DNA from: Hericium rajendrae
Taxonomy: Eukaryota > Basidiomycota > Agaricomycetes > Russulales > Hericiaceae
Direction of reading: 5' to 3'
NCBI GenBank assembly: GCA_033439255.1
Contig: CM065883.1
Span: 1,736,001 to 1,800,000 of the forward strand
DNA length: 64,000 nucleotides
The position numbers and the translations under genes were made by a program. This document shows, in pieces, positions 35,389-62,374 of the stretch (position 1 is its first letter; every line of letters begins with the position of its first letter). The notes beneath the pieces are model-generated. The model had not been told where the DNA came from and did no database searches. It worked only from the letters and a program-made list of their open reading frames with translations.

Positions 35389-38300
35389 TCAATTCGTAAA
35401 CTTCCCCCGCCGCTCCGCCACCACCGCCAGCACACTCGCCGCCTTGCCCAGCTTGCGCACCGCCGGCACGCTCGCCTCCCGCGCGACTCCGCGCGCACCA
35501 CCCCCGGCCCCCGACCCCGATGCCTTCTTCGTACGCCCGAGGCCCGTAACGGATGACCCCGCGCCCCCATGCCCCGGCCCCGCAATGCGCGACGAGCTCT
35601 CCTCCTTGAGCCACGACGCCATGCGCACGCGGTCAGACTCACTGATTTGTTGCCCGCGGCGAAGCTGCACATCAGCAATGCATTCATTAATCGAATTCCG
35701 TGTTCGTAGGGCAGAAGAGGACGCACTATCCCGTCGGACTCGGCATGGCCAGGGCCGCGCCGTGTAAGCCTCCGCGCGCCGCCCTCGATTTCGTGGAACT
35801 TGAGCGAGCTGAGCGTGTCGTCCTCATCCTCGCGCTCAAGCCACGACACGTCCGTAGGGTCCATGGGCGTATACTCCTGTCGCCCCTGTCAGCAAATAGT
35901 GATACTCAACTGTGGTACCAGCGTACCTTCGTATCGCGCGCAAGCTCCCGCAGCTTGTCGCGCACCGTGGACGCGGCAATCTCGCGGCCCGCGCCCTCCT
36001 CCGCGCCCTCCTCCGCGCCCTCCTCCTCCTCCGCGTCCGCATCCGCCATCGCTGTGTCCTGGTTCAAATGCGCAAACTCCGCAAAGTCGTCCGCGTGCCC
36101 GACCTGGTACGCCTCGTAGAACGGACGCGTTGCCGCGTCCTTCGCGAGATCCTCAAGATTATCTCCGTCGATGCGGCGCTTCTTCGCTGCGCGCCGCACG
36201 CGTCGCGCCTCGTCGTCGTCATCCTCCGACTCACTGTCGTCCAAGCCCGACGCCGTGATTGCGCCGCTTCACGCGATAGCGGCCCTCGGCGACATCCTTT
36301 GCCTGCTTCTCGAGTGCCGCGTCATCTTCATCCTGATGCTCCCTGCGTTGCATCAGCGTCAGCAGTCCATCCACATACGAGACGAGAGCAGAAAAGCACT
36401 CACTTGACCTTCTCGCGCACGAGCGCCTCCGCCACCGCCGCATCGCTCATCGGCGCGTCGTCCACCAGCCCCTCGAGCGTCGGGTCGTCCTTCCCATCGC
36501 CATCGCCCTCGTCGTCGTCGTCCTGCCCCGGCCTCTTCCGCACCCCGCCGAACCCGAATGCGTCGTCCTCGTCTGACTCCACAGCGTCCGCATCGACGAA
36601 CTCCGACCGTCCAAGCTTCTCCTTCTCCTTGCCCTTGCCCTTACTTGCGCCGCGCATAAGCGCATCATACGCGTTCCGCTGCAGCGCGCGTGACGGGGAG
36701 GGCGATGGAGACGGAGAGGGCGAGGAGCCGTACCCGTCGCGCTCCCCGCGGCGGCGCAGGCGCTGCATCGGCCGCTGCGACGGCGTCTCCGTGTCGTCGG
36801 AAAAGGCGAGAGTGCCGAGCGGCTGGCGCCGCCCCTGCGTTTGCGTGAGGCCCGCCGCGGATTGCTGCGTGCGCTGAGTCTTGAGGAAGTTCGTATATTG
36901 CGAGGGCGAGGGGCGGTAGAGCTCGGGGGTGGACACGTCCGGGCGGGTCTGGGTGAGGAATCTGCGGGACGAAATGATGGGGTGAGTACGAGGGGAAATA
37001 GAATGCTGCGAGGACATACCCGTTCTCGTTCACGTAGAGCTCACGTTTCTGCTGCTGCTTCGCGGGCCGGTTGGCGGCCTCGACGAGATACTCCTGCTCC
37101 TTCTCGAAGATCTGCTCTGCCTTCTCGCGGAGCGACTCATCGACCTCGAGCGCGGGCTGGAGAAGCTGCGTCTTGAACGTCAGCGAGAGATCAACCTTCC
37201 GCATGCTATCGAAGCCCGAGTTGTTCTGCCAATTTATGCGTCAATTATCTGTTTCATCAGTGACGAGACTATGTGCGCACTTGTGTCTCTTCGAAGGCCT
37301 GCGTCAGCCCTCCCAACTGCATGGGCTTCGGACCCTGCGTGACACCAGCAGTGCCCGATTCAAACAGCTGCGAGAATCCGCCCCGCAGCGCCGCTGCGGG
37401 TTGCGGCACTGCGTCCTTGTCGCTCACAGCAATCACTTCCTCCTCACCAAAGAACTGCGAGAATCCATCCTTCAATTTCGCTGGTTGCGGCCCCTCGCCT
37501 TTCTGTTCTGCACCTTCCTCTTCATCAAAGAACTGCGAGAATCCCCCGGCCTTGCCTTTTGCACGCGTCCCAAATGCAGGCGTAGGCGATGGTGGCAGCG
37601 GCGACCGCAGGCGTGCGATCACGCTCTGCGCCTCGCCGCCTGTGCGCTTCGCCGGTGTAAATGCAAATGGGTCATCCGCCTCGTCGGGCAGCTCGCCCAG
37701 TGGTCTCCGCGCGCTATCGCTGGCGTCCACTCCGGCTCCCGACGGGCTCATCGACAACCGTTGCTGCACGCCGTCTGCGAGCCCGAAGAGACTCGACTCT
37801 TGGCGCAGAGGCTGCGCCAGCCGTTCGCCAAGCGCATGCCGCACAACTGCCTTATTCTCCTTATCTTCACCGCGGTCGAACATCCGGTTCTCGACGTTCT
37901 CTTTGTCGGTTTCATTCTCGTTCTCGTTCTCAGCATCGGTGGTTGGGACGGATGCGGACGCGTTCGGAGCTTTGTGCGCAGTGGCTGTAGGTAAAAATGG
38001 GAGAACGGGATTTTCGGTGTCGGATTCTGCGTCGAGTCGAGGACGGCGCGAGGGCGGATTGTCGAGCGGCGACGGGCCTTTGGGCGCGGCGGAGCGAACG
38101 GATTCTCTTCGTCGTCGTCCTCAGGTCCATTATCCACCTCGGCATTGTCTCCATCCACATGCTTTGTCTCACCTCGTCGTCGTCGTCCTCTGCTTGCGTT
38201 TCATCCGGCACTGGGCTAGCAGACCCTCTTTCTTGCTCATCCGGCACCCAGTCCCCATCCTCATCGTCGCTATGTTCCTCCATCCCCCTTTCTCTTTTTT

Positions 38301-40254
38301 CCGCAACTTTCAGACCCTTTTCCAGCCACTCACCCACGTCCTTCTCTTCCAAAACACCTTCCTTGATCCTTCCGCCCCTCTTCACAAACTCCTCTTCCTT
38401 CTTCCTCACCTCCTCCGCGCGCTGTTTCTCCGCCCTCTCCAGCAAAATTCTGTCCAGCTCCGCTCTCTTCAAACCCGTCTTCTGCGTGCCCCTTGTCTTC
38501 ACCTCGTTGGCCACGCTAAATGTTGACCGCCCGGCACTCTTAAGCGCATCGACACTCATCTTGATATTTTGTTTCTCTGGCGATCCCGACACTGCACGAG
38601 CTCCCGACCTGCCTAGAGCAAGCTCGAGCTGTCGCTTGTGTACCTCACTCTGGCGTGGCCGGCCCTTGCGATCCTGCGCCTCCTCTTGTAGGTCCGCCGC
38701 GACGATCTCAAGCTCATCGTCGTCATCGTCATCGCTGTGGACCATGACAGCACGTCGCTCGAGCGCCAATTGCTTCCGTTGCTGAAGCTCGCGCTTCGCC
38801 TGGTCCCGCTTGAGGATATCGCGCATGGAGGGCATCGCTTCCTCGTCATCGTCGGATGTGGCGTCCGGGATCGCGCCCAGTAGGCCGGTCGGGCGGAAGG
38901 GCGAGATGACCATGGGCGCGACAGGCGCTGCGAAATGGACTGCCACTGGGAAGGGAGGCGCTGGAGTATGCGCGTGTGGATGGGTCGAGGGCGAGGAGAA
39001 TTGTTGGATCGGGTCGGAGGATATTCCCACTTGTTTGGGTGCAGGAGGAGGTCTCACTGGCGCTGTTGGTCTGGAAGGAATATCTGGTAAGTATGTACGA
39101 ACAATAGGTAAGCGCGAGCGAATACATGCTTTAAATTGGTGAGGAACTCGGACATCGGTTTCGTCACGGTGCTTGACTTGATCGAGGTTCGTCGGTCAGC
39201 AGCTAAACGGGCCGACTCCCTTTTTGCTTCAGCGATCTCTTTCTTGGTTAGACGCTAGTGTGAGCAAGTATGCAATGCAACGGGAAGAATAGGATGTCAT
39301 CGTAAGTCGTCTCGAGATGTCGCAGAAAGACCTTCTGAAAGCACGGACCTTGTCCTTTTTTGCCTTCTCTTTGCCTTTGCCTTTCCGTCCATCAGCCGCC
39401 TTGCTTCCCTTCCGTGAAGTATTAGCACGGGAGACTTCTTCCTCATCATCATCAAACAGCGAGGTCGCCACACTCCGTGCACGCTCCTTCCCTTTCCCTT
39501 TGGCTGTCAGTCGCGTCGGCAACATCTCGTCATCTGTCGTGGGCGGCGTTGATGTTCGGCCCTTGGGCGAGCCGAGAGGATTTTGGGGAGAAGTGCGTGG
39601 CGACGACGCCTCCGCGGGCGGGACAGGTTCCTCGTCGGACGAGTCGTGGATAATCTGGCGTGCGTGAGCGCGCGACGGCCGTTTGACGGGCGCAGCTTCA
39701 GGTGAGGATAGCTGCAGGGAGGATTGTGTGAGAGAGGATAGGGTGCCACAGAATAAGTCATCGTGTTCGGGGAGTGGCTCTGTCGCGGGTGAAGTGGGGA
39801 TATCGCTTCCGTGATGCGTGCTATGAGATCCATCTTTGTCTACGTTCATGGCATCGTCGTTATCGTCGTACTCCTGCCCACCATTAGCACCAGAAACATG
39901 CTTGAGTTCATCGCCCTCCATCTGGTCTATCTCGACCAGATGCTTCTTGAAAGCAAACTGGAACGAGCGCTTGTCGCCGTCATCGTCTCCGTCGTCGTTT
40001 TCAGCTTCACCGCTGTCGTTCCCTGCACCTGTGAGCATCGATGTCTCCGGGACATCGTGTCCATCTGAGTCCTGCGCTTCATCGTTCTCCGGCTTGGCCA
40101 GCCGCTGTTTTCGCGCTGCAAAAAGTGACGCTATCAGAGAGGGTGCGCCTGAGTCCGCGTCTGACGCGCGGACGCCGGTGTTGCTGTCCTTGCGGCGCCC
40201 ATAGGTAACCTTCGTCCGCTTGATGATGGGTGAAGGGGAGGTGCTGGGGGACAT
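35389..40254 (-). CDS. MRC1: MRC1/claspin-like replication checkpoint mediator
   Basis: Fork-bound adaptor that transmits the S-phase checkpoint to Rad53/Cds1 and keeps polymerase coupled to helicase. Start MSPSTSPSPIIKRTKVTYG, with KRTKVTYG a conserved N-terminal element. In order there are many SQ/TQ sites (SLTQSSLQ, GLTQTQ), then LTKKEIAEAKRESARLAADR with SSTVTKPMSEFLTNL, then SMRDILKRDQAKRELQQRK. The repeated GGFSQFFDEEE / DGFSQFFGEEE / GGFSQLFES and GGLTQAFEETQ follow, then AEQIFEKEQEYLVEAANRP, DDSESEDDDDEARRVRRAAK (MRC1-like domain core) and WLEREDEDDTLSSLKF, ending GKFTN. Frame breaks near 38172, 38032 and 36244 are not explained by introns. The first two look like lost bases; the third is net +1 or -2. 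About 1,300 residues. Confidence 0.9.
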
Positions 40255-41704: not shown

Positions 41705-42042
41705 GGTTTTGACATTTTGGAGAGTACGTTCAGGTTTGTCTCTCCATGTCTGAATCAGAGACTCCATGCATATGCCGTGTAATGACTCTGGACTACATAC
41801 CACCTATTTCTGCCATTGTATCCGTTTGTCTCTGAATGGATAGAACGTTCTCCTCCTTGGAATAATGGATATACTTCAATGAATTCCATTGTCGTGGTTA
41901 TGAGTACATACAAATCCTTAATGATAATGCAGATGCAACACAGCTTCGGCTCTACGCCATATAAGGCCTCTAGAAATAATCAGTTCATTCCCGATATCCT
42001 TGAAAATCTTTTTTTTTTGCTTCCTCGATCAATCCCGGCCTA
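41705..42042. other. Convergent 3' region
   Basis: About 340 bp, AT-rich, with a T8 tract at 42011-42018. Nothing else is seen. Confidence 0.5.
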
Positions 42043-43669
42043 TCATATCAGCTCGATATCAGCGACAGTCTCGTTCATCTGAACACTAGCGACAACGCCC
42101 GCAGTCACCCACGCACTCCATGCGGCCTGCAGCAGCATCACGAACGACTGCCCTTCCGGGCTATACGCGCCCTCCGCCGAGGGCGAGTTGAATGTTAGTG
42201 GGTCGACAGTGCCCTGCAGCCACCCATCGTCGTCGACGCTCTGCCGCACGAGCGCGAGCGCGGCGCCCGCCGCGTCGAGATGCGCACTGCTGTTCGTATG
42301 CGCGGCCATGCGCAGCGTCGTCGCGGCGAGCAACGCGGTCGCAGACGTGTCGGCAAAGGAGGTGGGATCGTCAACCGTGTTGAGGAGCGTGCCATTGTCT
42401 TGCTGCAGGGACCGCAGCAGGGTGTTAAGGCTGGAGGTGCGTGCGTAAGAGGAAGACATACCTGGTGTGCCCAGGTCCCGTTCAGGATTTCGTGCACCCA
42501 CATGGTGAGGTTTTGCTGCTGGAGTCTCATAGCATCCGCCGCATCCGACATGGCGATCGTGCTCAGTACCCTCATCATGCCCGCTGCCGCCCAGCCATTG
42601 CCTATGCCGATGTCAGGAATCAAACGCGATGATCTCACAAACATACGCACCAGTGGCCCAATGGGATGGGTCTTCAAAGTTCTCGTACGCGACATGGCGC
42701 CACAGACTCGCGTCCGCATCGAAGAGCACGTCGCGATAGAGCCGGCACTGGTCGTATGCTGCTTGCAGGAGCCCCTGGCCGTCTTCGCCGCCTTGCAGTG
42801 CGCCGTAGTACGCGATGAATGGCGGGGCCATGTAAACGAAGTCGGCCCTGTTCCGCAGTACGATGTCGATTCCCATTTTGGCGAGATGCGAGATTCCCGG
42901 GACGTACCATAGCTGGACTTGGTCTACCCGGTGAGAGATTGCGCCCTCGAGGGTGCGCGGAGCCTGTTCCATAAGGTACTGCAGCTGACCTCTCGCAGCA
43001 TCAGCGAATGTAGCATTCCACGGGTCTACATTCGTCCAATTCGCGAAGAGAACAGCGTTCCCAATACCTGTGAAGGCAATTAGTCTCTGATGGCATCTCC
43101 GCATACAAAGGAAACATACTGGCGGGATCACCCACAGCTCCATCATCCGCGACGAGAGGCAGCGACCATGACGGTTTATTGCTGATGACACTGCCAAGTG
43201 TGAATCGACGTCAGGCGCGGTCATGGCTCTCCGAAATGTGAAGGTCTCGACTTACGTGTCCGCGATCGCGACAATGTTCGTCGCGTTGTCCAGGCCTGTC
43301 AGCTTTTGGGGAAAGGGTATCGCATGTCCACTGAATACGGCCATCGACGGCCAGTACAGCTCTGTGAGTGCTTCTGCGAGGGTGCCGATTTCCCAGCTGC
43401 ACGAAAAGAGAACGTCAGTCGTGGAAAAATTGGACAAAGGCACCTAGTGCGAGTAGAAAGTAGACGAGATACTTCTCGTGATCGCGATACAGGTTGGAAA
43501 CGCACCTGGCACTGGAGATATTTTGTGCATTCGCGCTTACTAGACTGATTTGCCTGTCGGTGAACCCGGATGCAAGCGTTGTGGTGTTATGAGCGGCGGC
43601 GGATGTGAAAGCAAGGCAGCCCGCGACAAGACATAACAAAGGTCTTGAAAGATCAGTGAAGCGCATCAT
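42043..43669 (-). CDS. Secreted six-hairpin glycosidase-like protein, copy 2
   Basis: Seven exons (43669-43506, 43396-43256, 43190-43120, 43067-42908, 42847-42651, 42601-42462, 42402-42043) give 410 residues. The signal peptide is MMRFTDLSRPLLCLVAG plus CLAFTSAAA. The body parallels copy 1: SWEIGTLAEALTEL, GNAVLFANWTNVD, WADFVYMAPPFIAYYGALQ, SLWRHVAYENFEDPSHWATG, NGWAAAGMMRVLSTIAM, DDDGWLQGTVDPLTF and YSPEGQSFVMLLQAAWSAW. The first five intron positions are the same as in copy 1; copy 2 has one more, after WAHQ. Likely an extracellular (alpha/alpha)6-barrel enzyme of GH88/GH105 type, specificity unknown. It is convergent with the membrane-protein gene and inverted with respect to copy 1. Confidence 0.87.
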
Positions 43670-45039: not shown

Positions 45040-45165
45040 GACACGGGAACGGGTGAACCCATCGATATCTGGGATCAGCGATAACCGAAAATAAGATTTG
45101 TGGTTGTGTCGGATTTGTATCGTGAAACCTTGAGTCCCTCCGATCGCGTGCACTCATGAATGCAG
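45040..45165 (-). repeat. Diverged inverted repeat, copy A
   Basis: On the minus strand it contains GCGATCGGAGGGACTCA, which recurs at 45735-45760 on the plus strand. Similarity then continues in patches (ACGA..AATCCG, GATCCC.A.ATATCG.TGG) for about 100 bp. Its nature is unknown. Confidence 0.45.
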
Positions 45166-45830: not shown

Positions 45831-46004
45831 TAGTTCCGCGTCGCAGAAGAAGCGCCCGCGGAGGCAAATGTAGCCGTGGGATACACGATCTCCAAATACG
45901 GGCAGAACTATACAGTTGCCTTCAGCCACCGCCACCGAACATTTCGCCGTGTCCTCATCGCGCGAGGCCGCCCTCACCACCGACCACCGCCGCAAGATTT
46001 CAAG

Positions 46005-47501
46005 ATGAGGTGCGCATTCTTGCCATTCCTGCGTTTTGGAAACTACTAACGTCCATTTGACAGTCACCGAAAGGTCTGTAGTTATCTTTGCATTGCCTTG
46101 GGAAACCACTGAAGCGAGGCGTCGATCGTCTAGTACGAAGCGCCCCGCCATGGCTCCCTTGGCTTCCTCCCCGGAAGCGTGCCGCCCGCCACCGCGGAAA
46201 GGTCAAGTCCTTCCCCAAGGTATGTGACTTTCTGTGGCAATGAGAAAGTCCGTAATTTATGATGTTTTGTAGGATGACCCCAAGAAGCCTGTGCACTTGA
46301 CTGCCACCATGGGTTACAAGGCTGGCATGACCCACGTTGTCCGCGACCTCGACCGTCCCGGATCCAGTGCGTCCGCAAATTTTCTCTCACATCCGATGTT
46401 CTGAACAGTTCTGTGTTTTCAGAGATGCACAAGCGTGAGGTCGTTGAGGCCGTCACCGTCGTCGAGACTCCCCGCTTATCGTCGTCGGTGTCGTTGGTTA
46501 CGTCGAGACTCCCCGCGGCCTCCGTTCCCTCACCACTGTCTGGGCGTCCCACCTGTCCGACGAGCTTAAGCGCCGCTTCTACAAGAACTGGTACCGCTCC
46601 AAGAAGAAGGCGTTCACTCGCTACGCCAAGAAGCACGCTGAGGACGGCGGCAAGTCGACTGCGCGTGAGCTCGAGCGCATCCGCAAATACTGCACGGTCG
46701 TCCGTGTGCTCGCGCACACCCAGATCCGCAAGACCGGCCTCGCGCAGAAGAAGGCGCACTTGATGGAGATCCAGGTCAACGGCGGCAGCGTCGCGGACAA
46801 GGTCGAGTTCTCGCACGGCCTGTTCGAGAAGCCCGTCGAGATCGGCAGCGTGTTCGAGCAGGACGAGGTGATTGACATCATTGCGGTGACGAAGGGTCAT
46901 GGATTCGAGGGTGTCACCCACCGATGGGGTACCAAGAAGCTCCCGCGGAAGACGCACAAGGGTCTCCGCAAGGTCGCGTGTATTGGTGCATGGCATCCGT
47001 CGAAGGTCATGTTCTCTGTTGCGCGTGCCGGTCAAAGTCAGTATCGGTATTTTCATTTTCTAATTATCAGCTTCTGATCAAATTTTTATAATAGACGGTT
47101 ACCACCACCGTACCGAGCTCAACAAGAAAATTTACCGCATTGGTCTCGGCACGGACGACGGAAACGCGTCGACCGAGTCGGACGTCACCAAGAAGACTAT
47201 CACGCCTATGGGTGGCTTCCCCCACTACGGTATCGTCAAGAACGACTACGTGATGGTGAAGGGCTCCATTCCCGGAACCAAGAAGCGTGTCATCACCCTG
47301 CGCAAGTCGCTCATGGTGCACACTTCGCGCCGGGATCTCGAGAAGGTCCAGCTCAAGTTCATTGACACCTCGTCGAAGTTTGGTGTACGTGCCTTCGTTT
47401 CTCGAGTTTGCTGCACCTGCTCACGATATATTTTTCAATAGCACGGTGCTTTCCAGACTTTCGAGGAAAAATCTGCGTTCTTGGGAACGCTCAAGCAGTG
47501 A
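46005..47501 (+). CDS. RPL3: 60S ribosomal protein L3 (uL3)
   Basis: Essential large-subunit protein at the peptidyl-transferase centre. Seven exons: 46005-46009, 46064-46073, 46134-46219, 46273-46366, 46423-47036, 47095-47384, 47442-47501. The protein reads [18 protein letters not shown], then [92 protein letters not shown] and [16 protein letters not shown]. Two CCCC runs (46169-46172 and 46470-46473) are each one base short of the frame needed for FLPRKR and for VETPPLIVVG. With both allowed for, the length is 386 residues, against 387 in yeast. A gene like this cannot be broken in a living cell, so these are best read as assembly errors. Confidence 0.96.
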
Positions 47502-48004: not shown

Positions 48005-50094
48005 ATGCTGAGAGCGTCCTCTCTAGGCCTCTACCACAACCTGCGCTTGCCATGTCAGACCATCGCTACCCTTCCCGCCGTCTCCCGCGGCGCTTTCAAC
48101 ATACAGATCCGCATGCACACCAGCCCGACTGGGCAGAGACAGGGTTCGCCGCCGAGAATGCATGGCGCGAGCCGCCGTCAGAGTTCGAAGTTGGGTGTTC
48201 GAGGGATGCTGGGCCTGTCGGAGGTGTTGGCAGGGCGGAGACGGATGGCGGTGGGACGACGGCGATGCCCGCGTCAGAAGAAGAACTCGATCCCGAGATA
48301 GAAGAGGATGGCCAAAATCCGAGCGCAGAGGGCCAAATACCGAGTGAACAGGAGGATCAAAAACGAAGAGAGGAGAAGGGCCCAAAGGGCCGGGACGCCG
48401 TGGGAGCAGCCCGAGGAGGACCACCCGAGAGGACCAGACCGAGGAAGACCAGACCGAAGAGCCGATCAAAGCGCGCCCGCCGCATACGGTGTACGAGAGA
48501 GCAACCTTGAAGGACTGGCCGAAGGAAATCCAAATATCGCCACATGTCGGAGAATGGGAGCTCGCAGACTTGCAGAAGCAGTTCGACGACGACGAGGATA
48601 CATTTTCCTATCTTTATCGGCGGCCAGCGACAGCGACCACGTCATCGAGGAACTGCCCCACAGTCCGCGCCCCACCGGCACCATCTTCTCCGCGAACCGC
48701 TATCGACTGCTGCACAAGCTCGCGACGGTGCAAAAGCCGGACGCCGCCTGGGCCGCCTACGTCGCGCTCGCGCGCCTCCCCGCGCCGCCGCGCGCGCACT
48801 GGCTCGTCCCGTTCGCGCACCTGCACCGGCTCGTGCGCGTGCTCGGCACGGCACCGCGCACGCGCCGCACGTACCTGCGCGTGCTCGCGGTGCTGAGCGC
48901 GCTGCACCGCGCGGGCGGGCGCACGCGGCGCTGGGAGTGGAACCTGCTCATCGACTGCGCGGGCAACGGCCTGCGGCGCACGCGGCGCGCGGACTTCAGC
49001 GCCGCGGTCGAGGTGTACCTGGACATGACTGGCGGGCGCGCGCCGGGGACGACCTTCGCTGAGCGCCGACGCGCGCTCGAGGACACGGATGAGGAGCCCA
49101 ACGAGGGGCCGGAGTACAGGCCCGCGTTCGCGGAGCAGGAGGTCGAGGGGGCTGAGAGCGAGGAGGACGCGCGCACGCCGGACATCTACACGTACGAGAC
49201 GCTGCTCACGATCGCGGCTGCGTCGCGCCACCGCGCGTCGATCCAGTACGCGTCGGGGCTGCTCGCGCGCTCGGGGCTGGCGCCGACGCTCGGGTGCCAC
49301 CTCGCGCTGGTGCGCTACTTCGCGGAGCGCGGCGAGCTGAGCGGCATGCGCAGCGCGATCCTGCGCATGCGCGAGCAGGGCCTGCGCCTGAATGGGATCG
49401 CCATCAACGCGTGCCTCTGGGCGTACGTGCGCGGCGGGCGCGTCGACATCGCGAGCGCGCTCTACCGCGTGCTGCGCGCGCACGCCGTGCCCGAGGAGGA
49501 CCCCGACGCGGACGAGGACGTGCGCGCGGCGGAGGCGTACCTGCTCGAGCGCGAGAAGATGGCGATTCCGCCGGGGCTCACGCCGGACGAGATCACGTTC
49601 CAGATCATGGTGCAGGGGTATGCGCGCACGGGCGACTTCACGCGCTGCGTCGCGGCGTTCAGCGACATGCTGAGCATCGCGCCGCGCCCGCGCGACGGGC
49701 CGCCGCTGCCGCCGATGCTGCACGCGTACCGTGCCGTCTTTCTCGGGTTCTTCCACCACGGGGAGGTGCCGGGAGAGCCGCCGCCGCCGCCGGAGCCGCG
49801 CGGGGAGCTCGTGCGCGAGGCGACGGTCGACACGCGCGGGTGGACGGCGGCGCACCTGCGCACGTTCTTCACGCGCTTTCTCGAGCTGCCGCACGACCGG
49901 CCGCTCAGCGAGCGGCTTTCTTCTGGATCATCATGGGTTTCGCGCGGACGACGGGGTGGGACGCGCGCGTAGTGAAGAAGGTGTGGGAAGAACTTGAGGC
50001 GAAGTTCGGTAGGCCGGTGGGCGGGCGGTTGAGGACGTTGAAGAAACGGATTTTCGAGGCGGCGGAGGATGCGGACGACGGTCGATGGAAGTAA
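48005..50094 (+). CDS. Mitochondrial PPR-type RNA-binding protein
   Basis: The start MLRASSLGLYHNLRLP is a plausible presequence, followed by an acidic/basic linker and the block TVYERATLKDWPKEIQISPH. The main body has helical-repeat units typical of pentatricopeptide proteins: DIYTYETLLTIAAASRHRAS, SGLAPTLGCHLALVRYFAE, GLRLNGIAINACLWAYVRGG, GLTPDEITFQIMVQGYARTG. It ends FFWIIMGFARTTGWDARVVK...ADDGRWK. Such proteins bind mitochondrial transcripts for stability or translation. The frame changes four times without splice sites, near 48234, 48430, 48614 and 49912, each in the sense of one lost base. Allowing for these, the protein has about 697 residues. Very high GC (GCG/CGC codons) makes long antisense frames, which are not genes. 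Confidence 0.75.
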
Positions 50095-51533
<1,439 letters not shown>

Positions 51534-52752
51534 CGGTGCTGGTGGGGGTGGTGCACTGCAGGGACGCAGAGGACAAAGGGGCAGGAGGCAGGGGGAGGAG
51601 GAGAGAAGGAAGGAAACGGGGTAGCCGAGCAGATTAGACGGCTCGCGGAGTTTCCTCTTTTGGCGCCGTGCGGGTCTCTGCTAGCTGACGTTGCACTCGC
51701 TGCGACGTTTGTATGGACGAGAATAAATTTCCGGACCTTCAGGCTCAACCAGTATTGAACAAGTAGTCATCGAAGACCTAGATCCGATACCGACCCCCAT
51801 CCGATAACCACGCAGCGGTGCTCGGGAAGGGAAGGACCATGCCCTTCATTTCCGAGGTCGGCTGGTCTGCTACTGTCTCCGACAGCGAGAACGGACCTGA
51901 ATGGATGTGTTGACTTAGCCGCACTCTCCTTAAACAGTCTATAGAAGCCAGTCGATCTCCCCTGCAGGCCCAACGCAATCACGAATGGCAAAAACAGCGG
52001 GCGCGAACGGACAACTCTATTCTGTGCAGGAGAAGATCCGCATGGAACATTGATATTGCCAGGGCGTCTCGACGTCCTTATCTGCCGTCCGTAGCACGCA
52101 TGCATACATGTAGAGATGTCAATGTCAATCGCGAGTGGAACGAAAGGGCTCAGGAACGAATGATGTGCAACACACATACGACGCGCCGTGTCCTCAACGA
52201 AAATCAAATCAGAATCAGGTGGATGGGATGCGCGACCGTACAGGCGTACAGTAGAGGGCACGTTAAGTTAGCAGACAGATATGGTATACGGAGATAACTC
52301 AGTAGAAGCAGGTAGATGCGTGAGCGAGAGGCGATCAGGATGCGTGCCGAGACAGAGAAACGGGAAGGAGGGGGATTATGCTGTGCTGCGTATGTACGGG
52401 CGAGGTATGTATGATATGGACAGACGCGGATCGTCGTGGGGTAGTCGCGGGGAACGGAGCACTGCGCGGTCGTGGGGTGGGGTGGGGTAAGCCAAGCCGG
52501 GTGAGTGAGACAGACTGTGAGAAGGAAAACAAATGCAGAAGCGAGGTATATGGGCATAATCATCATCATGGGGCAGTACGTGCGGATATCTTGACGTGGA
52601 TATCGCAATGGGAGGGGGACATAGCGGGTGGATCATAGGCGGACGCGCCGCATCGGTCGGGTCCTGGGCATAGAGAAGTCGACGGCTGCAGAAGCCTATC
52701 TCGTGGGTAGGGGGATGCGCGGTCTGGCACAGAAGCTCGCGCGAAGCTGATG
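51534..52752. other. Intergenic region, AMMECR1 gene / Rab gene
   Basis: 1.2 kb between the AMMECR1 start and the Rab stop. It should hold the AMMECR1 promoter and the Rab 3' region. Minus-strand frames of 150-165 codons here (51767-52261, 52376-52834) lack motifs and have His/Ser/Pro compositions typical of noncoding frames. Confidence 0.4.
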
Positions 52753-54084
52753 CTATACGGCGCAGCAACTCCACCCCGCGCGCGCGGCTGCCGCCTTCTC
52801 GCGCGCCTCTTCCTCGTCGGCCTGCGCGGCCCACGTCGGCGGCGCGATGGGCGCGAGGAACACGCTGTCGCGCCGCTTCAGCTCGTTCTCGTGCTCGATG
52901 CTATCCTTCTTCGCGATGATCGCGCCGATGAGCGAGTCGAACAGATCCTGGATGCCTGTGGAGAGTCAGCACCAGTGCGGGCGGAGAATGCACGAACGCA
53001 CCGTGGTCGTTCTTCGCGGACACCTCGAAGAGCTCCATGCCCTTCTCGAGTCCCCACTCCGTCTTCGTCGCATTCGTCCTCGTCCTCATCCGCTTCTAGG
53101 CTGCCCTCATCCACGTCCTCGGGACCGCCCCACACGCGCCCGAAGCCGTATCCACCATTGGTGGCCGTGTACCGCGCGAGCGCGCCAGTCGAGCGCGTTG
53201 CAACGGGCTTGGTGCGGCCCTCCATCGAAGAGTGTGAATCGGGCGGCGACGGCTTCGGCGGGGAGAGTGGCACGGAACGCACGGAGGTGAAGGAGGTGAA
53301 GCGGGGGCGGATGTAGGAGAAGGCGGAGGGCTGCTGCGGCGCAGGTGCGGGGGGTGTGGGCGGGCGCGGTGGCGGGAACCACTGGTGCAGCGAGAGGCGC
53401 GCGAGGTCGGACGACACCTGGCGGTGGTGTGTGAGGTCGGCCTTGGCGCCGACGATGTAGATGATGAGGTCGGGTGCGCAGTTTCTTTTGAGTTCTGGCG
53501 GGGGATGAGCCTGAATGGGCATGTGCGGGCGGACAGGGGCGTACCTTCGAGCCAGCCGCGGACGTCCTCGAAGGAAACTGCACTCGTGATATCATACAGG
53601 AGAAGCGCTGCGTTCGCGCCGCGGTAGTACATGGGTGCCTGCAATCGAACCGACGCAATGCAATGCAACGATCAATCAAAACAATCGCGCCGGTCAGAAT
53701 CGCTCCAACGATGCAATACACTGAGGAACGACGCACCATGCTGCGGAAGCGCTCCTGGCCAGCGGTGTCCCAGAGCTGGAGGCGGACCTTGAGACCATTG
53801 ACGGAGATCTTCTTGGTGACGAAGAAGGCACCGGTCGTGGAGGTCGTGTTCTTGGGATCGAACTTGTTTTGTGTGTACCGCTGGAGTAGACTGGTCTTTC
53901 CGACGCCTGCAAAGTTCAAGGAAGTACATGGTTGACATCGAGTAGCAGTGAGCGGGACGTGAGTGTGCGGAATGGAAACGGATCCGAGGAACGCACCAGT
54001 GTTGCCCATGACCACGATCTTTGCGTCGATGCCGTGGTCATACCTGGACCGCTTGTATGGATCCATGCGCGGGTATGCGGCCAT
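52753..54084 (-). CDS. Rab family small GTPase (Rab5/Rab22-like)
   Basis: Membrane-traffic switch. Exons 54084-53997, 53906-53737, 53638-53545, 53494-53002 and 52955-52753. G1 GNTGVGKTS and switch [14 protein letters not shown] are followed by G3 [20 protein letters not shown] and [16 protein letters not shown]. The G4 position reads VGAKADL instead of the usual NKxDL. An insert of about 90 mostly disordered residues ([15 protein letters not shown]...) precedes G5 [10 protein letters not shown]. The C-terminus CCAV is a CCxx geranylgeranylation signal. A frame change near 53060, between the acidic stretch and EWGLEKG, is net +1 or -2. A second ATG at 54066 ([12 protein letters not shown]) is an equally possible start. 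The Rab subfamily is a judgement from [20 protein letters not shown]. Confidence 0.9.
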
Positions 54085-54495
54085 GGGGACCGACGCCGCG
54101 TCGGGGAGGAAGAGGGGGAGGGAGAGAGTTGGAGGAAGTGGGAGGAGGAGAGGGAGAGGTGGTGGCCAGATATGGACCCCTGACCAGACGCGCCCACAGT
54201 GACTCACGTGCTCGTTCTCCCGGATCGCGTCTTGCGCTGCATTGTCTTCCTCGGAACTACGGATCGATGCTTATCTCTCCATTCTCTATTGTCTCTTCCA
54301 CCGCCTTGCACGGCGCCCGTCACTCAAAACACGCGCTAGCAGGTGCATAGCTCAGACAAGGCTCCTCGGGCGCTTCGTTTCATGGCTCGGCATGGTCATA
54401 TTTTTGTGATTGCGAAATAAGGAGAAACATGTCATAGCTCTTAAAAATGCCCGCTCGAGCCGCCACATCCCCATCCCCACACAGTCTCCTCTCCT
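54085..54495. other. Intergenic region, Rab gene / RPS7
   Basis: 410 bp upstream of the Rab start and downstream of the RPS7 stop, on the same strand. Promoter sequence is expected. I see no gene. Confidence 0.45.
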
Positions 54496-55200
54496 CTACT
54501 CTTGTGCCTGCTGTACAGGGAACTCAAACACGACGTCCTTGCCCGTCAGGCGGCGGTAGATAGACGTGAACGAGTCGAGCTTGTACTCGAGTGATGTAGC
54601 GTCCTTCGCGTCCAGGAACCTGTACCCCTACAGTCAGCCAGGCCGGTCGGCGAAACACAGGTGTCCGTACGCACACTTTGAGCAGTTTTGAGCCATCGAC
54701 GGCAACGCGGGACCGCTTGCCGACGATCTCCGTCGGGAAGACAAGATCTTCGAGGATCTTCTCGTGCACGCTCGTGAGCGTGCGGCTGCGGGGGCGCTTC
54801 TGCTGCACGCGCGACGTGCGCGTCGGCTTGCGCAGCATCCGGCGCTGGGCCACAAACACCACATGGCGGTCGGAGAACTTCTTCTCCAGCTCGCGCGTCA
54901 GTCTGCCGCGCCCCCCATCCATCAGCCCGCTGTACTGTGCGCATGCAGCCGGTACGCACCTCTGCTGGACCTTGTGGAACGCCTTCAGCTGGGGCACGGG
55001 CACGAAAACGACGATCGCCTTCTTCCCCCGCGTACGTCCACCTCGCGCGCGGCGCTGATCTGCAGCGGGCGCAGCTCGACCTTGAGCTCGGGCACGTTGT
55101 TCTCGAGGTCGATGAGCGCCTGCGCGACGGCGATCTCCGTCTCGTCGGGGGGCGTGGTCGGCGCGTTCGCCGAGCGGAGGATCTTGTGCTGAACGGACAT
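54496..55200 (-). CDS. RPS7: 40S ribosomal protein S7 (eS7)
   Basis: Small-subunit ribosomal protein. Three exons (55200-54960, 54902-54675, 54619-54496). The sequence reads [14 protein letters not shown], then [60 protein letters not shown], then [20 protein letters not shown] and [20 protein letters not shown], ending [21 protein letters not shown] five-base C run at 55025-55029 (G5 on the gene strand) is one base too short for VRGGKKAIVV. Allowing for that, the length is 197 residues, close to the 190 of yeast Rps7. Intron phases agree throughout. Confidence 0.96.
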
Positions 55201-55925
55201 CTTGTTCTTGCTGTTACGGTTGTCGCGGTGGTGGTCGGCCCTGCAATGCGTCGGTCAGTCGCTGCATCCGGGGGCGCGGGGTTGCATCCATCCCTTCCTG
55301 CCGCTCTTTCGCGGGATTTTTGCGATGGATGGCATTTAGGACCGTCTTCTGACGGCTTTGGAGGACACAAATGGGCAGAATGGACTCACCGAGCGTGTCC
55401 CGTCGTCAATGTCTTTTTGCGTTGATGATGCTTGCCAGGGCACTCGGGAATGAGTTTGTGTGCCAAACAATGACAACGCGGGATGTGGCGGTGCGCCCCA
55501 GCTCCCCGCGCCTCCACACTCGCTCTCCTGCACCTATTCCATGTTCATTTCTTTCGCACTTGTGTTATAATTTGCTCCTGAAATTGTATTCTACTGTGCG
55601 CAGAGGTGATATTTGATGCATCACGCAGACGACGCGCATGGAGTCCATTTGCAAGTACTTGGAGATGTGCCAATTACGATTCGTATAGTATCCCAGCATC
55701 TTTTGATTGAGTGTTGTATTCGGTCCTTTCTTTTTTATGATATCTCTTGGTTTTTGGTTGGTAAAGTTCCACTTGTAGGTGGTTGCTTTGACAGCCAGAC
55801 CGCTAAACACTCCACCATGCTGGCCACAGCCCGCACTCTTAGTTCATACGGTACGACCGCCCCCCGCCAACGCTAACAATGCTCTATGGTTCTATGGCTA
55901 CAGTAATTGAGACACTTCAACCAAC
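55201..55925. other. RPS7 upstream region and TTC4 3' region
   Basis: 725 bp. The bases next to RPS7 may contain a 5' leader with its own intron, as is common in ribosomal protein genes, but I cannot fix one. AT-rich sequence follows toward the TTC4 stop. No gene is seen. Confidence 0.4.
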
Positions 55926-57157
55926 TCACGCCTCCCGTCCGCTCTTAAATTCTTCCACCCATTTCCTCTCCACCTCCCCTCTCGGCAGCACCACAAACGT
56001 CAAGCACCCATCCTTCAGCTCAACCCATCCCGCGGCTCGCCATCCCGCGCCCGCGCCGCGCGACACACCTCCCGCAGCGTCATGTTCTTCCCGACCTTAA
56101 GCAGCCGCCGCCGGCGCGTCATCGCATACACAACCAGATTCCCATCGACGTACGCGCCCGCGGCGTCCCACGCGGGCGCAGGTGCGCAGGCGGAAACATC
56201 GCGGCGATGTGCGCCGCGAACGGCGTGTCCTCGACGAAATGCGGCACCGCGTCGCTCGTCGCGTGCTCCGGGTAGAGGAAGAAGACGGGCAGGACCAGCG
56301 TGCGGCGCGCTGGGTCCTCCGGGTCGAAGTAGGGCGCGTACGGGTTCGCGGTGCCCTGTGGGTTTGGGATCTCGATGAGGTTGCGCTCCTGCGGCGGGTC
56401 AGTTCGTGGGTGGTGGGTGGGGCAGGAAAGAAACGTACGGCGAATGCGGCTTTGAGGGCTTGTGCTTCGGCTTGCTCTTTTCGTATCCGCTCTGCGCGCT
56501 CGCGCTCGGTCGCTGCTTTTGCTTCTTGCCGCGCGAGTACCTTGTCTCGGAGGGCACGCACACCTGCATTTTTGGAGTCGAACACAAGGCAGCGATCACA
56601 GACATCGAGCGCGTCGTCAACGCGGTCTAGGGCGAGGAGCGCGAGCCCCGAGCGGTAGTGCGCTTTTGCCGAGCGCGGGTTCAGCGTGATCGCGCGGGAG
56701 CAGTCGCGCAGTACCGCGCCGAAGTTTTCTGTCGCCCGCCATCAGGCCTTTTGCACGAAACAGAGTGAAAGAGACAGCGCACTGAGTTCAAGGTTGCACG
56801 CAGCACGATTGCACAAAAGCGCCTCCAGGAGCACAACGTCCGTCGGCTGCGCATCGACGCCCTGCGTATAAAACCCCAGCGCCTCGCGCCATCGACTGCC
56901 CTTGAAGTAGTCGTTCCCCTGCTCCTTGAAGTTCTGCGCGATCTCTGCGCGGGCGAGGTTGGCGGGGCGACGGGAGAGGAGGAGGGGGGCGCACCGTCGG
57001 GCGTGCCCTCGTACGCGAGGCTCTGCAGCGCGGCGAGCGTGTCGTTCGCGCTGTCGTCGGCGGGGAGCGAGTGCATGAAGAGCGGGATGGTGTTGAAGGC
57101 GGCGGCGAGCCGGGCGTCGTCTTCTGCGTCGGGGCGCGGTTGTGGTTGGGAGGCCAT
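55926..57157 (-). CDS. CNS1: TTC4/Cns1 Hsp90 co-chaperone
   Basis: TPR co-chaperone linking Hsp90/Hsp70, essential in yeast. Exon 1 starts MASQPQPRPDAEDDARLAAA and has NTIPLFMHSLP. The TPR domain follows: IAQNFKEQGNDYFKGSRWRE, ALGFYTQGVDAQPTD, LLCNRAACNLELKNFGAVLR, DCSRAITLNPRSAKAHYRSG. A helix rich in Arg/Glu/Ala (ATERERAERIRKEQAEAQAL) precedes the C-terminal wheel domain: NPYAPYFDPEDPARRTLVLP, FFLYPEHATSD, YVDGNLVVYAMTRRRRLLKV, GKNMTLREVC, and WVELKDGCLTFVVLPRG, ending EEFKSGREA. Two places, near 56185 and 56052, need one more base to keep the domain in frame. Confidence 0.9.
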
Positions 57158-57492
57158 GGTGGGCGCGGATTTTGTTGCGTGTAGTGGGATCGGGTGGTTT
57201 GTGCTGTAGTTAAGTCAGTAGAGTTAGAATCTGAGTGGCCGGGGTGTATGTAGATGTCGGTTAGATATGAGCGGATGAGCGGATGGAGGGAGAGGATAAG
57301 ATGCGGGGCCGACTCCGCCGCGCACCGAGAATCATCATGGCCCGTGACATTGACCACGACCTTGTGCAACTCGCGACGACCGGACGGCGACCCGTGTAAA
57401 TCTGACTCCTTTCTGTTTGAGTCATAAGCTTGAGAAAAGGAACGTTGAGTCTTTGTCGAAGACGATCAGTGATCTGAAGGCAGTTCTGCAGT
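57158..57492. promoter_or_regulatory. Divergent promoter, TTC4 / L2HGDH
   Basis: 335 bp between divergent starts. An ATG at about 57337 opens a short frame (MARDIDHDLVQLATTG) that ends within 40 bases or so, a possible upstream frame of the L2HGDH leader. No clear core motif. Confidence 0.4.
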
Positions 57493-58971
57493 ATGCAGCG
57501 ACTGCGCGGGCTTACAGTCGGGCTGAACAGCTCGGGGAGGTACAAATTCAAGGTGCGCATGCTCATCATACCCATAAATCGACCGCATCCTTACATATTT
57601 TCTTCCAGCCACCAGAATCTGTCGTAGATCATCTGGTCATAGGCGGAGGTAAGTTACCACAAGTACCCCCGCCGCCTAGTGCTCATCTTCTCCTCAGGCG
57701 TAGTCGGCCTCGCCGTCGCACGGCGTCTCGCACAACGCTTCCCCGACAAAACCACCTTTCTCATCGAGCGACACACCCGCGCAGGCGAAGAAACCAGGTA
57801 CGTCTGAACCCCTCTCGCACGCACTCTCCCCATCTCACCCCTCCCCAGCTCGCGCAACTCCGAAGTCATCCACGCAGGCCTGTACTACCCGCCCGATTCG
57901 CTCAAAACCAGGCTCTGCCTCCGCGGGCGCGCGCTCCTCTACGCCTACTGCGCAACACATAACGTCCCCGTGCGCAAGACGGGCAAGCTCGTCGTCGCGC
58001 GCGCAGAACAGACGCCGTACATCGAGCGCCTGCACGCGAAGGCCGCCGCGCTCTCCGCTGCTTCTCCCGACACACCAATATTACCCACGGAGCTCATCAC
58101 CGGCGCGCGCGCCCGCGAGCTCGAGCCTGACCTCTCGCGCGACATTGCCGCCGCGCTGTGGAGCCCCGAGACGGGCATCGTCGACTCGCACGCGCTCATG
58201 GCGAGCCTCGAAGCCGACATCGCCGACTCCGAAGGCGGCGCCCTCGCCTACGCGACGCGCGCCGTGCGCGTCGACGCCGCGCCCGACGGCTGGGTCGTGC
58301 AGGCCGTCACGGGCGCCGACGACGGGGAGGGCGACGCGCTGCTCGCGCGCACGCTCGTGAACGCGTCGGGCTCGCGGGCCCGCGCGTGCTCAACGCGCTG
58401 CTGCCCCCCGCGCGTCGCATCCCGACGTACTTCGCGCGCGGCTCGTACGCGTCCTACCGCGGGCCCGGCGCACGCGCCGCGCACCTCATCTACCCGTGCC
58501 CCGACAGCCGCCGCGAAGGACGGGACAGCCACGCGTTCCAGTCGCTCGGGACGCACCTCACGCTCGATCTGCAGGGCAAGGTGCGCTTTGGGCCGGATCT
58601 GGAGTGGATTCAACCTGATGCAGATGAGGAGGGCGAGGTTGATTTCTGGCGGCGGTATTTGGTGCCGGACGAGTCGCGGTTGGGGGAGATGTACAAGGCG
58701 GTGAGGGAGTATTTGCCAGGCGTGGTGCTCGAGGGCATGCAGCCCGACTATGTCGGCGTGCGGCCGAAGCTCGTGCCGCCCGGGGGCGGCTTCCAGGACT
58801 TCGTGATCCGCACGGACTATAGTGGCGATTTCGTGGCGGCGAAGACGGGGGAAGGGCGGGCCCATGGTCAGTTTGCTGGGGATCGAGAGCCCGGGGCTCA
58901 CGGCCAGCCTGGCGATCGCGGAGACGGTGGTGGACGATATTCTTGCGAAAAGGAAGGACGTTGTACAATAG
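57493..58971 (+). CDS. L2HGDH: L-2-hydroxyglutarate dehydrogenase (FAD-dependent)
   Basis: Oxid ises L-2-hydroxyglutarate to 2-oxoglutarate in mitochondria, a metabolite-repair step. Exons 57493-57552, 57609-57648, 57698-57797 and 57849-58971. The Rossmann FAD motif VDHLVIGGGVVGLAVARRLA is split by an intron. Then SSRNSEVIHAGLYYPP, KTRLCLRGRALLYAYC, LEPDLSRDIAAALWSPETG, PTYFARGSYASYRG, LGTHLTLDLQGKVRFGPDLE, GMQPDYVGVRPKL and LLGIESPGLTASLAIAE. The N-terminus MQRLRGLTVGLNSSGRYKF is short and basic. The frame must change near 58369 (after NASG) and once or twice between 58830 and 58862 (before PMVSLLG), each in the sense of lost bases in G-rich sequence. Length about 441. Confidence 0.91.
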
Positions 58972-59030
58972 AAAGAAAGCACATGCATTCTATCAGGAAG
59001 AAACATCTGCGTGTATGTATGGCGAGCGAG

Positions 59031-59664
59031 CTACTCTCCCCGCGGTGTCACCTTCGGCTGCCAGTGCTCGACTTTGGGCTTCACGGTGTTGTAACATCGG
59101 TACGCGCCGCGGGTCCCAGTCAGGTTCTCTATCCATGGCTGAAGAAATACAGACATTCAGTCCAGCACGGATTGACCAGATAGGAGATACGTACGGCCTT
59201 CCACGGCGGCGACACGCTCTGCATCACAGCGTCTACCGGCGGCGGCTCCTTGCGGATATGCGACAGCCACGAATGCCACTCCGCCGGGACCTGCGTCGCG
59301 TTGTTGTCGTGCTGGAAGAAAGCCAGCATCAGCAAGCGTGATCACGCACAGTGTTCGGGGTGCGAACCTGCGCAAAGTCGACCCATCGGTGCCGGCCTGG
59401 CAATACATGAGTTCAAAGCACGTTGACACAGCGGAAAGCACGCACCAGGAAGCTCCTGCTCCGCATTCAAGTTCTCAAAATACCTGTTCCCAAATCTACA
59501 GCAGCCGGTCAGCGCCCTCTCCGCGTCGAGTCCGTGTGCGCGACGTACTGGTCCTTCCCCATGAACTTCCCCGACTTCACATCGCCGATGTACTGCATCT
59601 GGTGCCACCATTCCCTGATGCCCACCTGCCGGATACCACGGATGTACCGTACGATGCCGACCAT
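59031..59664 (-). CDS. NDUFA12: NADH:ubiquinone oxidoreductase subunit NDUFA12 (B17.2)
   Basis: Accessory subunit of mitochondrial complex I. Exons 59664-59446, 59396-59368, 59311-59195 and 59138-59031 give 157 residues once one base is allowed for near 59526. The protein reads MVGIVRYIRGIRQVGIREWW, GKFMGKDQYVAHTDS, FGNRYFENLNAEQELPG, RHRWVDFAQ, then VPAEWHSWLSHIRKEPPP and PWKAPWIENLTGTRGAYRCY, ending KVEHWQPKVTPRGE. These are the classical B17.2 blocks. The stop lies 60 bp from the stop of L2HGDH on the other strand. Confidence 0.93.
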
Positions 59665-60185
59665 GTTTCGTGTTGTCTGAGAGGAGGAGAGATGTTTGGC
59701 CGGGTTTGGCCGGGAGGTCGGAGGTGCGTTTGTTCGTAATCCGTTCGAGTGTCCGGGTCCAAGCCTGCTCTTCAGACAGCTGCAGGCTCTGAAAGCTCTG
59801 ATTCAAATTCAGGACAAATACAAGTGCTGGACAAGTCAATGAGAAGGTGCAGTGCATAGTGCACACATTCTATTACAGGCATACATAAGTACACGCTAGA
59901 AATACGGCTTATCCGCACAGCCTACTTACAGCGAGAGATCGAGTAGTAGTTACGAATGTGGGCGTATAGTTCGAAGTAGGAACAGAAACCAAAGCCGGAC
60001 GAAGCTAGGTATATAGATATAGGAAGCGCAGAGCGAACAAAGTCAAAAGTCACAGACAGAACGACAAAGTCTCGAAGGGAGAATAAAGAAAGTCGAAAGG
60101 GCGCGGAAAAGGCAAGCATAAACATCCGTAGATCGCAAAGGCGAAGAAAACAGTCGTGTATAGACTAAGAGAGTCAGACCAGCGC
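59665..60185. other. Intergenic region, NDUFA12 / BEM1
   Basis: 520 bp holding the NDUFA12 promoter and the BEM1 3' region. AT-rich near 59880-60060. Nothing else is recognised. Confidence 0.45.
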
Positions 60186-62374
60186 TCAGTCCGCGTACAG
60201 CACGTGCTTGTCCGTGCTCTCGAGCCATATCCGCAGGTCCTGGTCCTGCTCGAGCGGGACAAAGTCCTCCGCGCCGCCAACGCTCTCGCGGTACGACAGC
60301 GCGCCGACCTTCCCGCCGAGGCGCTCCTGCACCTTCCCGACGAGCTGCTCGTGCGTCACCTTCGGGTGCACGCGGATCGCGATGAGGTCGTCGCTCACGC
60401 GGTCGAAGATCTTGATCTTGATGAACGCCGTCTGCGGGTTCTGCGCGGAGATCGGGTTCGGCGACGCGAGCGACTGCGAACGTGAGCGCGCGGGCGCCGA
60501 GTCTGCGACGGAGGAGCGCGACTGGTGCGAGGAAGGCGATGTCGCCTGGGTGTTGTGCGACGAGTGCGAGTGCTGCTCGGGCCACCGCGACACGGAGGAC
60601 GTCGAGGAGCGCGAGTATGACGACGTGCGGTATGTGTCTGTGTCGAGCGCCGTGAGATTGCCCGGGTAGGATGGGTGTGGCGCGTGCCCGCGCACACGGC
60701 CGTCGGGCGAGGGGCCTCGAGAGTAGGAAGATTGCTGGGAGGGCTGCGTGCGGTGGCCGTTCGCGCGGCTTTCTTGCCGCTGGTGACCGTTCGCGGGGCG
60801 GCGGGCGTCGTCACCGTAGTCGGAGCCATCGCTCTCGCGGTGTCGCCCATTGGTGGCGCGGCTGGCGGTGTGATGGTGGCCGGACGAGTTCACGTGGATC
60901 GAGCTCAGCCGTGACGATTCGATCTCCTCGACGACTGAGAGCGGCGGGACGATGGCCGGTTCCTCCACGGGCTCGTACCAGTTCATCTCATCCATCATGT
61001 CAAACTGGGGATCTATCGCGTTTTCCACGTCGCCCGGCTTGACGGACAGGAACTGCCGCGTGAGCTCGGCTTCGAGAATGTAGCGGCCAGTCGTGCGGTT
61101 GAGCCGAGTCAGATGACGGAGATAGTCGTCGAGCTCCTCGCGCCGAGCCGCTGTAAGCTTGTCGTCGACTGTGTCCGCCGGACCGGGCATGTATGGGATG
61201 ATTCTCGGGTACGGCTCCTGCCTTCCAGCTTCGCGAGGGAAAAGTTCGATAACGGACGATTGATAGTCGAAAAAATCGTTGTACGCGCGGAATAGGACAA
61301 GGTCGCGCGCAGGTGGCAGAGAGGTCGTATCGTCGAGGTCGTACGGCTGGTACATCGCGTGGATGCGGAACCAGTACTCGTCGGTCTCGAAGTGGAACGA
61401 GACGACTGATGCGGAGAGTAGAAGGCCGGGGGTAGCACTTTGGGGGAAGAAGGGGGAGAGGACTGCTCTGCAGGTTGATGTGCGGTTTGATAGGGATGTG
61501 GAGACGGCTGTTGGACGGAGATGGTGGGCGGGCGAGCGGCGCCCGCGGGTGTAAGGGGGATAGACTGGGCTTTGGGTGAGAACGTAGAGTCGGCCACGGG
61601 GCTTGTGTTCGGCGATGAGTCCAGTGTGCCGAGGGGATGCTGCTCGCCTTGTAGCTGAGCATCTGCTTCTTCCACTCCTCGACGCGAGGCAGACTGCCGT
61701 TATCCATAAGCGCATCGAGATTTTCGATACGCTTGTTCGTTGCAGGATCGCGAATCTCCACGAATGAGACGGGAATGAGGCCCGGTTTGCCAAGTTTGCC
61801 GATAGGCTTGGCTACGAACCACTCGCGGTTGGATTGCGCGACCACAGAGATGGAATCGCCCGCCTTGGCGTCGAGCTCATCAGCGCGCTCGGCGACAAAG
61901 TCATGCATGACTACGGCATAGAAGGCTTGCGATTTTGGAGAGCGCATCGAGGGCGGCCGGTCCGACGAGAACGATAACGACTGGGAAGATCGGGTTCTGC
62001 AGCGGATGATGGGAATCAAAAACTCAGCATTCCCCAGCCGGAACGACGAGAAACCGCAAGACTCACGTTGCAGCGCCCTTCTTGAACTCCTCGAACAACG
62101 CTCTAGGGACCAGCCCGCGGGCCCCGCTCGCAGGATTATGTGCTTCGTACCATGTGCCCTGCTCGTTGACCTCACGGATTACGTAGAAAAAATCGCCCTT
62201 CTGAAACGAAAGCTCCTGTGGGGCCTGGGATCGATATGGGCTAGTTGCACGGATGACTTTCTGCGGGGGTATGATCGCGGCGGAAGGCTTGGATACGGGC
62301 GGGAGGGGAGTAGAGATCTGGTGATGATGGGAAGTATCTTTGTTGGCGTTCAGGGACTTCCTTAGGGCCTTCAT
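60186..62374 (-). CDS. BEM1: Polarity scaffold Bem1/Scd2 (SH3-SH3-PX-PB1)
   Basis: Scaffold that binds Cdc42, its exchange factor Cdc24 and PAK kinases at sites of polar growth. The first exon (62374-62067) reads MKALRKSLNANKD and holds SH3-1: IRATSPYRSQAPQELSFQKG, DFFYVIREVNEQGTWYEAHN, GLVPRALFEEF. The second exon, from 61996, has SH3-2: FYAVVMHDFVAERADELDAK, AGDSISVVAQSNREWFVAKP, GLIPVSFVEI. A Ser/Pro linker and the PX domain follow (VVSFHFETDEYWFRIHAMYQ, RAYNDFFDYQSSVIELFPRE, LTAARREELDDYLRHL). The PB1 domain closes the protein: FIKIKIFDRVSDDLIAIRVH, EDFVPLEQDQDLRIWLE, ending HVLYAD. Two one-base frame breaks lie near 61634 and 61440. Confidence 0.96.

What the first reader, a model, noticed from the sequence alone, without database searches (positions are those of the whole stretch)
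35389..62374. Pervasive one-base frame breaks in essential genes point to assembly deletions, not pseudogenes
RPL3 (two), RPS7, NDUFA12, BEM1 (two), TTC4 (two), L2HGDH (two or three), MRC1 (two or three), AMMECR1, the PPR gene (four), and farther left HBS1 and the ABC transporter, each shift frame inside conserved motifs with no splice site. Nearly all are in the sense of one missing base, mostly in or beside runs such as CCCC, GGGGG or TTTT. Cells cannot lack RPL3 or RPS7. The pattern fits homopolymer undercalling by an uncorrected long-read or pyrosequencing assembly. Automatic annotation would split or truncate these genes.
Basis: partly seen in the sequence, partly recalled or inferred. 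Interest (0 to 1): 0.72.

Follow-up and report, generated by a model that had tools for sequence, protein, structure and literature searches.

The report
Assembly indels break mushroom genes
Several indispensable genes look broken in this stretch of a mushroom genome, but the breaks are almost certainly single-base errors left in a nanopore-based assembly, so they are a warning to annotators and not a discovery about the living fungus.

Summary
The window lies in the assembly of the mushroom Hericium rajendrae NPCB A08: total length, contig number and two contig lengths equal the published total, contig count, largest contig and N50. It was built from nanopore R9.4 reads and polished with Racon and Pilon. 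I located 12 frame breaks in nine genes (ten lose one base, two gain one) and one probable one. RPL3 and RPS7, both broken, were found nowhere else by profile search. Three of nine chaperonin genes on other contigs also carry a break, and calls in 35-62 kb are 6.7 times denser than in a 200-kb sample. Single-base assembly error is the best explanation. Homopolymer undercalling is only part of it: 4 of 12 losses with a known place (ten here, two in chaperonins) could lie in runs of 5 or more (about 5% expected), 8 could make a run of 4 at most, and a 16-base run is kept nearby. Errors at sites where the two nuclei differ are not excluded. No reads were available.

The parts
4623..4645 (-). HBS1 frame break, net loss of one base
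   Evidence: read by eye; homologue continues across with one residue at the join; missed by the gene finder
36234..36254 (-). MRC1 frame break, net gain of one base (or loss of two)
   Evidence: Pfam MRC1 positions 59-93 and 94-140 one base apart in different frames, both pieces under the cut-off; gene finder call at 36260-36263
46161..46183 (+). RPL3 first frame break, net loss of one base beside a C run
   Evidence: not called by the gene finder
46461..46483 (+). RPL3 second frame break, net loss of one base beside a C run
   Evidence: gene finder
49904..49923 (+). PPR-protein gene, frame break near its 3' end, net loss of one base
   Evidence: gene finder and reading; no family match spans it
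50866..50888 (-). AMMECR1 frame break, net loss of one base
   Evidence: Pfam 27-88 and, weakly, 126-167 in two frames; gene finder; no solved-structure hit
55016..55035 (-). RPS7 frame break, net loss of one base beside a G run
   Evidence: called by the gene finder only at the lower penalty
56016..56038 (-). TTC4 second frame break, net loss of one base
   Evidence: Wheel domain 46-87 and, weakly, 89-114 in two frames; sequence; not called by the gene finder
56168..56193 (-). TTC4 first frame break, net loss of one base
   Evidence: Wheel domain 2-44 and 46-87 in two frames; TTC4 of 6hfo aligned across with a gap at the join; gene finder
58360..58380 (+). L2HGDH first frame break, net loss of one base
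58844..58867 (+). L2HGDH second frame break, net gain of one base
   Evidence: gapped part of the alignment
61416..61451 (-). BEM1 probable frame break, net loss of one base
   Evidence: read by eye only; not called by the gene finder
61625..61641 (-). BEM1 frame break, net loss of one base beside a C run
   Evidence: reading and gene finder
   Evidence: spliced protein matches NDUFA12 of solved complex I

Best explanation
The frame breaks are single-base consensus errors of the assembly, and the genes are intact in the fungus (Hericium rajendrae NPCB A08). Nanopore R9.4 reads of a two-nucleus (dikaryotic) culture gave a consensus with scattered one-base losses, a few gains, and an excess beside G/C runs. 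The published Illumina polishing left a residue, which is dense in this stretch of contig 6 and sparser in the other places looked at. Shown: the breaks, their sense, their contexts, their presence on other contigs, the identity of the assembly. Inferred: that the reads would carry intact frames, and why polishing failed here.
For: Assembly identity: 46,767,965 bases in 19 contigs, C1 5,307,752 and C6 3,238,877 equal the published total, contig number, largest contig and N50. Paper passages: R9.4, NECAT, 2x Racon, 2x Pilon, heterozygosity 3.61%, BUSCO 91.6% against 96.4 and 97.5 in two relatives. RPL3 and RPS7 families matched only here in an exon-by-exon search of the whole genome. Proteins continue across seven of nine joins searched. 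Breaks also in 3 of 9 chaperonin genes, on contigs 5 and 7, two losses and one gain. 4 of 12 located losses could lie in runs of 5 or more, about 5% expected, P about 0.002. A decayed copy of TTC4-L2HGDH on contig 12 looks quite different, disrupted in all frames as I read it.
Against: No reads or cDNA were available. The paper reports Pilon polishing, which should remove most such errors. Eight of the 12 located losses could make a run of 4 at most, six of 3 at most. A 16-base G run is kept at 51127-51142. A stretch kept in two versions (contig 6 start and contig 15) shows only four one-base gaps in 10 kb, so errors are not uniform.
Confidence: 0.93

Rival explanations
1. The errors arise mainly where the two nuclei of the dikaryon differ. 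At such a site the consensus either drops both alleles (loss of one base) or keeps both (gain of one base), and short-read polishing fails because the reads split between two bases.
For: All 12 located losses can be read as loss of a codon third base with no residue changed, where random base loss would allow this for 50% of bases; the three gains (MRC1, L2HGDH, chaperonin delta) can be read as two third bases side by side. Heterozygosity is 3.61%. The two window pieces searched (46000-47500 and 56000-62500) have no second nuclear version in the assembly, while a stretch kept in two versions has few one-base differences.
Against: Any loss from a run of three or more is also readable as third-base loss, so the test cannot separate the two models, and I placed the joins by eye. 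The excess at long runs is not predicted. As I read them, all three gains would need transversions. The two-version stretch is short and its coding content was not established.
Confidence: 0.25
2. True pseudogenes: a recently decayed chromosome segment.
For: Several neighbouring genes are hit and the stretch is a hot spot (binomial P 4e-4, for a stretch chosen because breaks were seen there).
Against: RPL3 and RPS7 have no other copy found; lesions are only single-base; proteins are otherwise conserved; breaks also occur in chaperonin genes elsewhere; a decayed copy on contig 12 looks different.
Confidence: 0.02
3. Unrecognised introns explain the frame changes.
For: True for NDUFA12 and for the ABC gene joins that I read.
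Against: At the 12 located sites the pieces, as I read them, abut within one or two bases, with no room for an intron.
Confidence: 0.03
4. Programmed frame shifting or RNA editing restores the frames.
For: None beyond the breaks themselves.
Against: Both senses occur, in unrelated genes, with no shared slippery motif seen by eye in the contexts (no motif statistics were run); the solved homologues need no shift.
Confidence: 0.01

Closest known systems
Residual indel errors in nanopore assemblies that truncate predicted proteins (Kastor, PMC12007338; Polypolish, PMC8812927; only the start of each abstract seen, in the listing)
   Same: Single-base errors, commonly homopolymer-length errors, that split genes and can remain after polishing.
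   Different: Here only 4 of 12 located losses could be in runs of five or more, some breaks are gains, and the source is a strongly heterozygous dikaryon.
Decayed duplicate of TTC4-L2HGDH on contig 12 (L040)
   Same: Also interrupts these frames.
   Different: Only pieces remain, at 67-85% identity, disrupted in all frames as read by eye; the window copies carry one-base changes.

Membership tests
Residual long-read assembly indel | Assembly built from error-prone long reads | tested here: met
   Assembly matched to PMC10608310 by four exact figures; passages read name nanopore R9.4
Residual long-read assembly indel | Single-base changes, mostly losses | tested here: met
   10 of 12 located window breaks are losses, 2 gains
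Residual long-read assembly indel | Excess at homopolymer runs | tested here: met
   4 of 12 losses could lie in runs of 5 or more against about 5% of third-base sites, P about 0.002; but 6 of 12 allow 3 at most
Residual long-read assembly indel | Accurate reads disagree with the assembly | not testable with these tools
   No reads held
Pseudogene | Working copy elsewhere, or a dispensable gene | tested here: not met
   RPL3 and RPS7 families matched only in this window; not tested for the other seven genes, except that DNA of TTC4-L2HGDH-BEM1 has only a decayed partial match elsewhere
Pseudogene | Accumulated lesions beyond single-base shifts | tested here: not met
   Proteins conserved on both sides of the joins; compare the decayed copy
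Programmed frame shift | Common slippery site and one sense of shift | tested here: not met
   Both senses occur; contexts differ, judged by eye without motif statistics
Spliceosomal intron | GT-AG stretch that restores the frame | tested here: not met
   Not met at the 12 located sites as read; met at NDUFA12 59548-59496

The most novel reading that the evidence does not exclude
The genomic bases are right, and the fungus restores the frames of essential genes such as RPL3 and RPS7 at the RNA or ribosome level, by base-insertion editing or pervasive frame shifting.
Probability: 0.01. Interest if true: 0.95.

Novelty: not a real feature. Interest (0 to 1): 0.15.

Why it matters
Automatic annotation of this public genome is likely to split or truncate such genes. 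A rough extrapolation from the sample (6 calls in 67.4 kb of predicted coding, detection about 56%; 93,499 exons of mean 182.74 bp in the paper) gives of the order of 2,700 breaks genome-wide; false calls are included in it. It may explain part of the lower BUSCO score. Absence of a gene in this species should not be inferred from the assembly without reads.

Tried and rejected
A test of undercalling on ribosomal RNA failed: the 18S pattern had no match, and the Rfam query gave no usable answer twice. The run-length spectrum hints at few G/C runs above five, but no eukaryotic yardstick was on hand, so I do not lean on it. The third-base test cannot separate run loss from allelic-site loss. The two-version stretch (contig 6 start and contig 15) is too short to decide; a third pair of pieces (L038, L039) did not match. 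Of the six sample calls of the gene finder, five were put to Pfam: one (L016, 2855) ends a glutamine-synthetase match, and the motif beyond the join is recalled; for the other four no family spans the break. The sixth (L005) lies in a simple repeat and was not tested. The call at L034 1221 has no length difference from the other version, so it is false or shared by both. At both RPL3 breaks my query held one X too many; the homologues show no residue there. The mean run length test gave P 0.0003 with chaperonin and 0.012 with window background. The L016 loss, found later, fits the same pattern and is not in the counts.

Full report
What the window is. It is contig C6:1736001-1800000 of a 46,767,965-base, 19-contig genome. 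Contig lengths seen here include C1 5,307,752 and C6 3,238,877. A paper found by its size (listing; passages and one section read) reports for Hericium rajendrae NPCB A08 a total of 46,767,965, 19 contigs, largest 5,307,752 and N50 3,238,877. Its methods: nanopore R9.4 reads, NECAT, two rounds of Racon, two of Pilon with Illumina reads, purge_haplotigs. The strain is a dikaryon with 3.61% heterozygosity. BUSCO is 91.6%, against 96.4 and 97.5 for two relatives. The words frameshift, pseudogene and RNA-seq do not occur in the held main text.

The breaks. I read the genes in three frames and checked open frames with Pfam and read-throughs with X at the joins against solved structures. Twelve breaks are located: RPL3 two, TTC4 two, L2HGDH two, and one each in RPS7, AMMECR1, BEM1, MRC1, PPR and HBS1. 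Ten lose one base, two gain one (MRC1, second L2HGDH). A further BEM1 break is probable. Of nine joins searched against solved structures seven are spanned; AMMECR1 gave no hit and the second TTC4 join lay beyond the alignment. The PPR and BEM1 breaks rest on the gene finder and reading only. HBS1 lies outside the given coordinates.

The NDUFA12 site is a 53-base GT-AG intron (59548-59496); spliced, the protein matches complex I NDUFA12. The ABC transporter gene joins at normal introns where I could read it. In MRC1 one break is supported; the other junctions that I read are introns.

Not pseudogenes. Searches of the whole genome, exon by exon, match the RPL3 and RPS7 families only in this window. 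The other seven genes were not tested this way. A DNA search with 56000-62500 found one other place, on contig 12. I fetched it: it holds pieces of TTC4 and of the start of L2HGDH at 67-85% identity, disrupted in all frames as I read them. That is what a decayed copy looks like in this assembly; the window genes do not resemble it.

How widespread. Of ten chaperonin places listed I fetched nine, from six contigs, and left out C1:1063134. Six read clean; three have one break each (two losses, one gain), and homologues show exactly one residue at each join. A gene finder based on codon usage, with introns and a costly frame shift, was trained on 3,671 codons taken from eight of these chaperonin loci and from window genes, four stops among them. 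It found 67 of 120 artificial single-base losses and made no call on the six clean chaperonin genes, five of which were in its training set. It made 9 calls in 15.2 kb of predicted coding in 35389-62374, none in the other 14.7 kb of the window (HBS1 was missed), and 6 in 67.4 kb of a sample of twenty 10-kb pieces. The share in the stretch is higher than chance (binomial P 4e-4), but the stretch was chosen because breaks were seen there. With a lower penalty there are 13 calls in the stretch and 20 in the sample, 13 of those 20 gains, so many of them are probably false.

What kind of error. For the 12 losses whose place is known (ten in the window, two in chaperonins; the probable BEM1 site left out), the longest run that the missing base could have made is 2 (once), 3 (five times), 4 (twice), 5 (three times), 6 (once). 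About 5% of third-base sites reach five; here it is 4 of 12, P about 0.002. So runs matter, but eight of the 12 allow a run of four at most. A 16-base G run (51127-51142) stands in what I read as an AMMECR1 intron. All 12 can be read as loss of a codon third base with no residue changed. Random loss would allow this for 50% of bases, but loss from a run of three or more always allows it. The three gains can be read as two third bases side by side. This fits sites where the two nuclei differ, and polishing would fail at just such sites, but the data do not separate it from run errors. A stretch present in two versions (contig 6 start and contig 15, 97.2% identical over 10 kb) has nine gap openings, four of them of one base: one 83 bases from the contig end, one at what I read as an intron end, two in sequence of unsettled status.

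Conclusion. The breaks are real in the sequence and most likely artefacts of the assembly (0.93). Reads would settle it.

Noticed in passing
L040 (C12:1630500-1634400), about 197-1899; compare window 55924-57958: Decayed partial duplicate of the neighbouring TTC4 and L2HGDH genes on contig 12; pieces of 67-85% identity, disrupted in all frames as read by eye.
   Followed up: partly
L034-L037 (C6:1-20000 and C15:86401-106400): The start of contig 6 is also present, inverted, in contig 15 at 97.2% identity over 10 kb: probably both nuclear versions were kept although the paper reports purging.
   Followed up: partly
window 51127-51142: A run of 16 G, in what I read as an intron of AMMECR1; the longest run in the window.
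   Followed up: no
window 31277-32152 (+) and 42046-43251 (-): Two separate matches to glycosyl hydrolase family 88 in one window; only one piece (42616-43251) passes the curated cut-off.
   Followed up: no
window 52750-54270 (-): Ras-like gene with a long low-complexity stretch and a possible frame gain near 53072, for which an intron is not excluded.
   Followed up: partly
   Followed up: no
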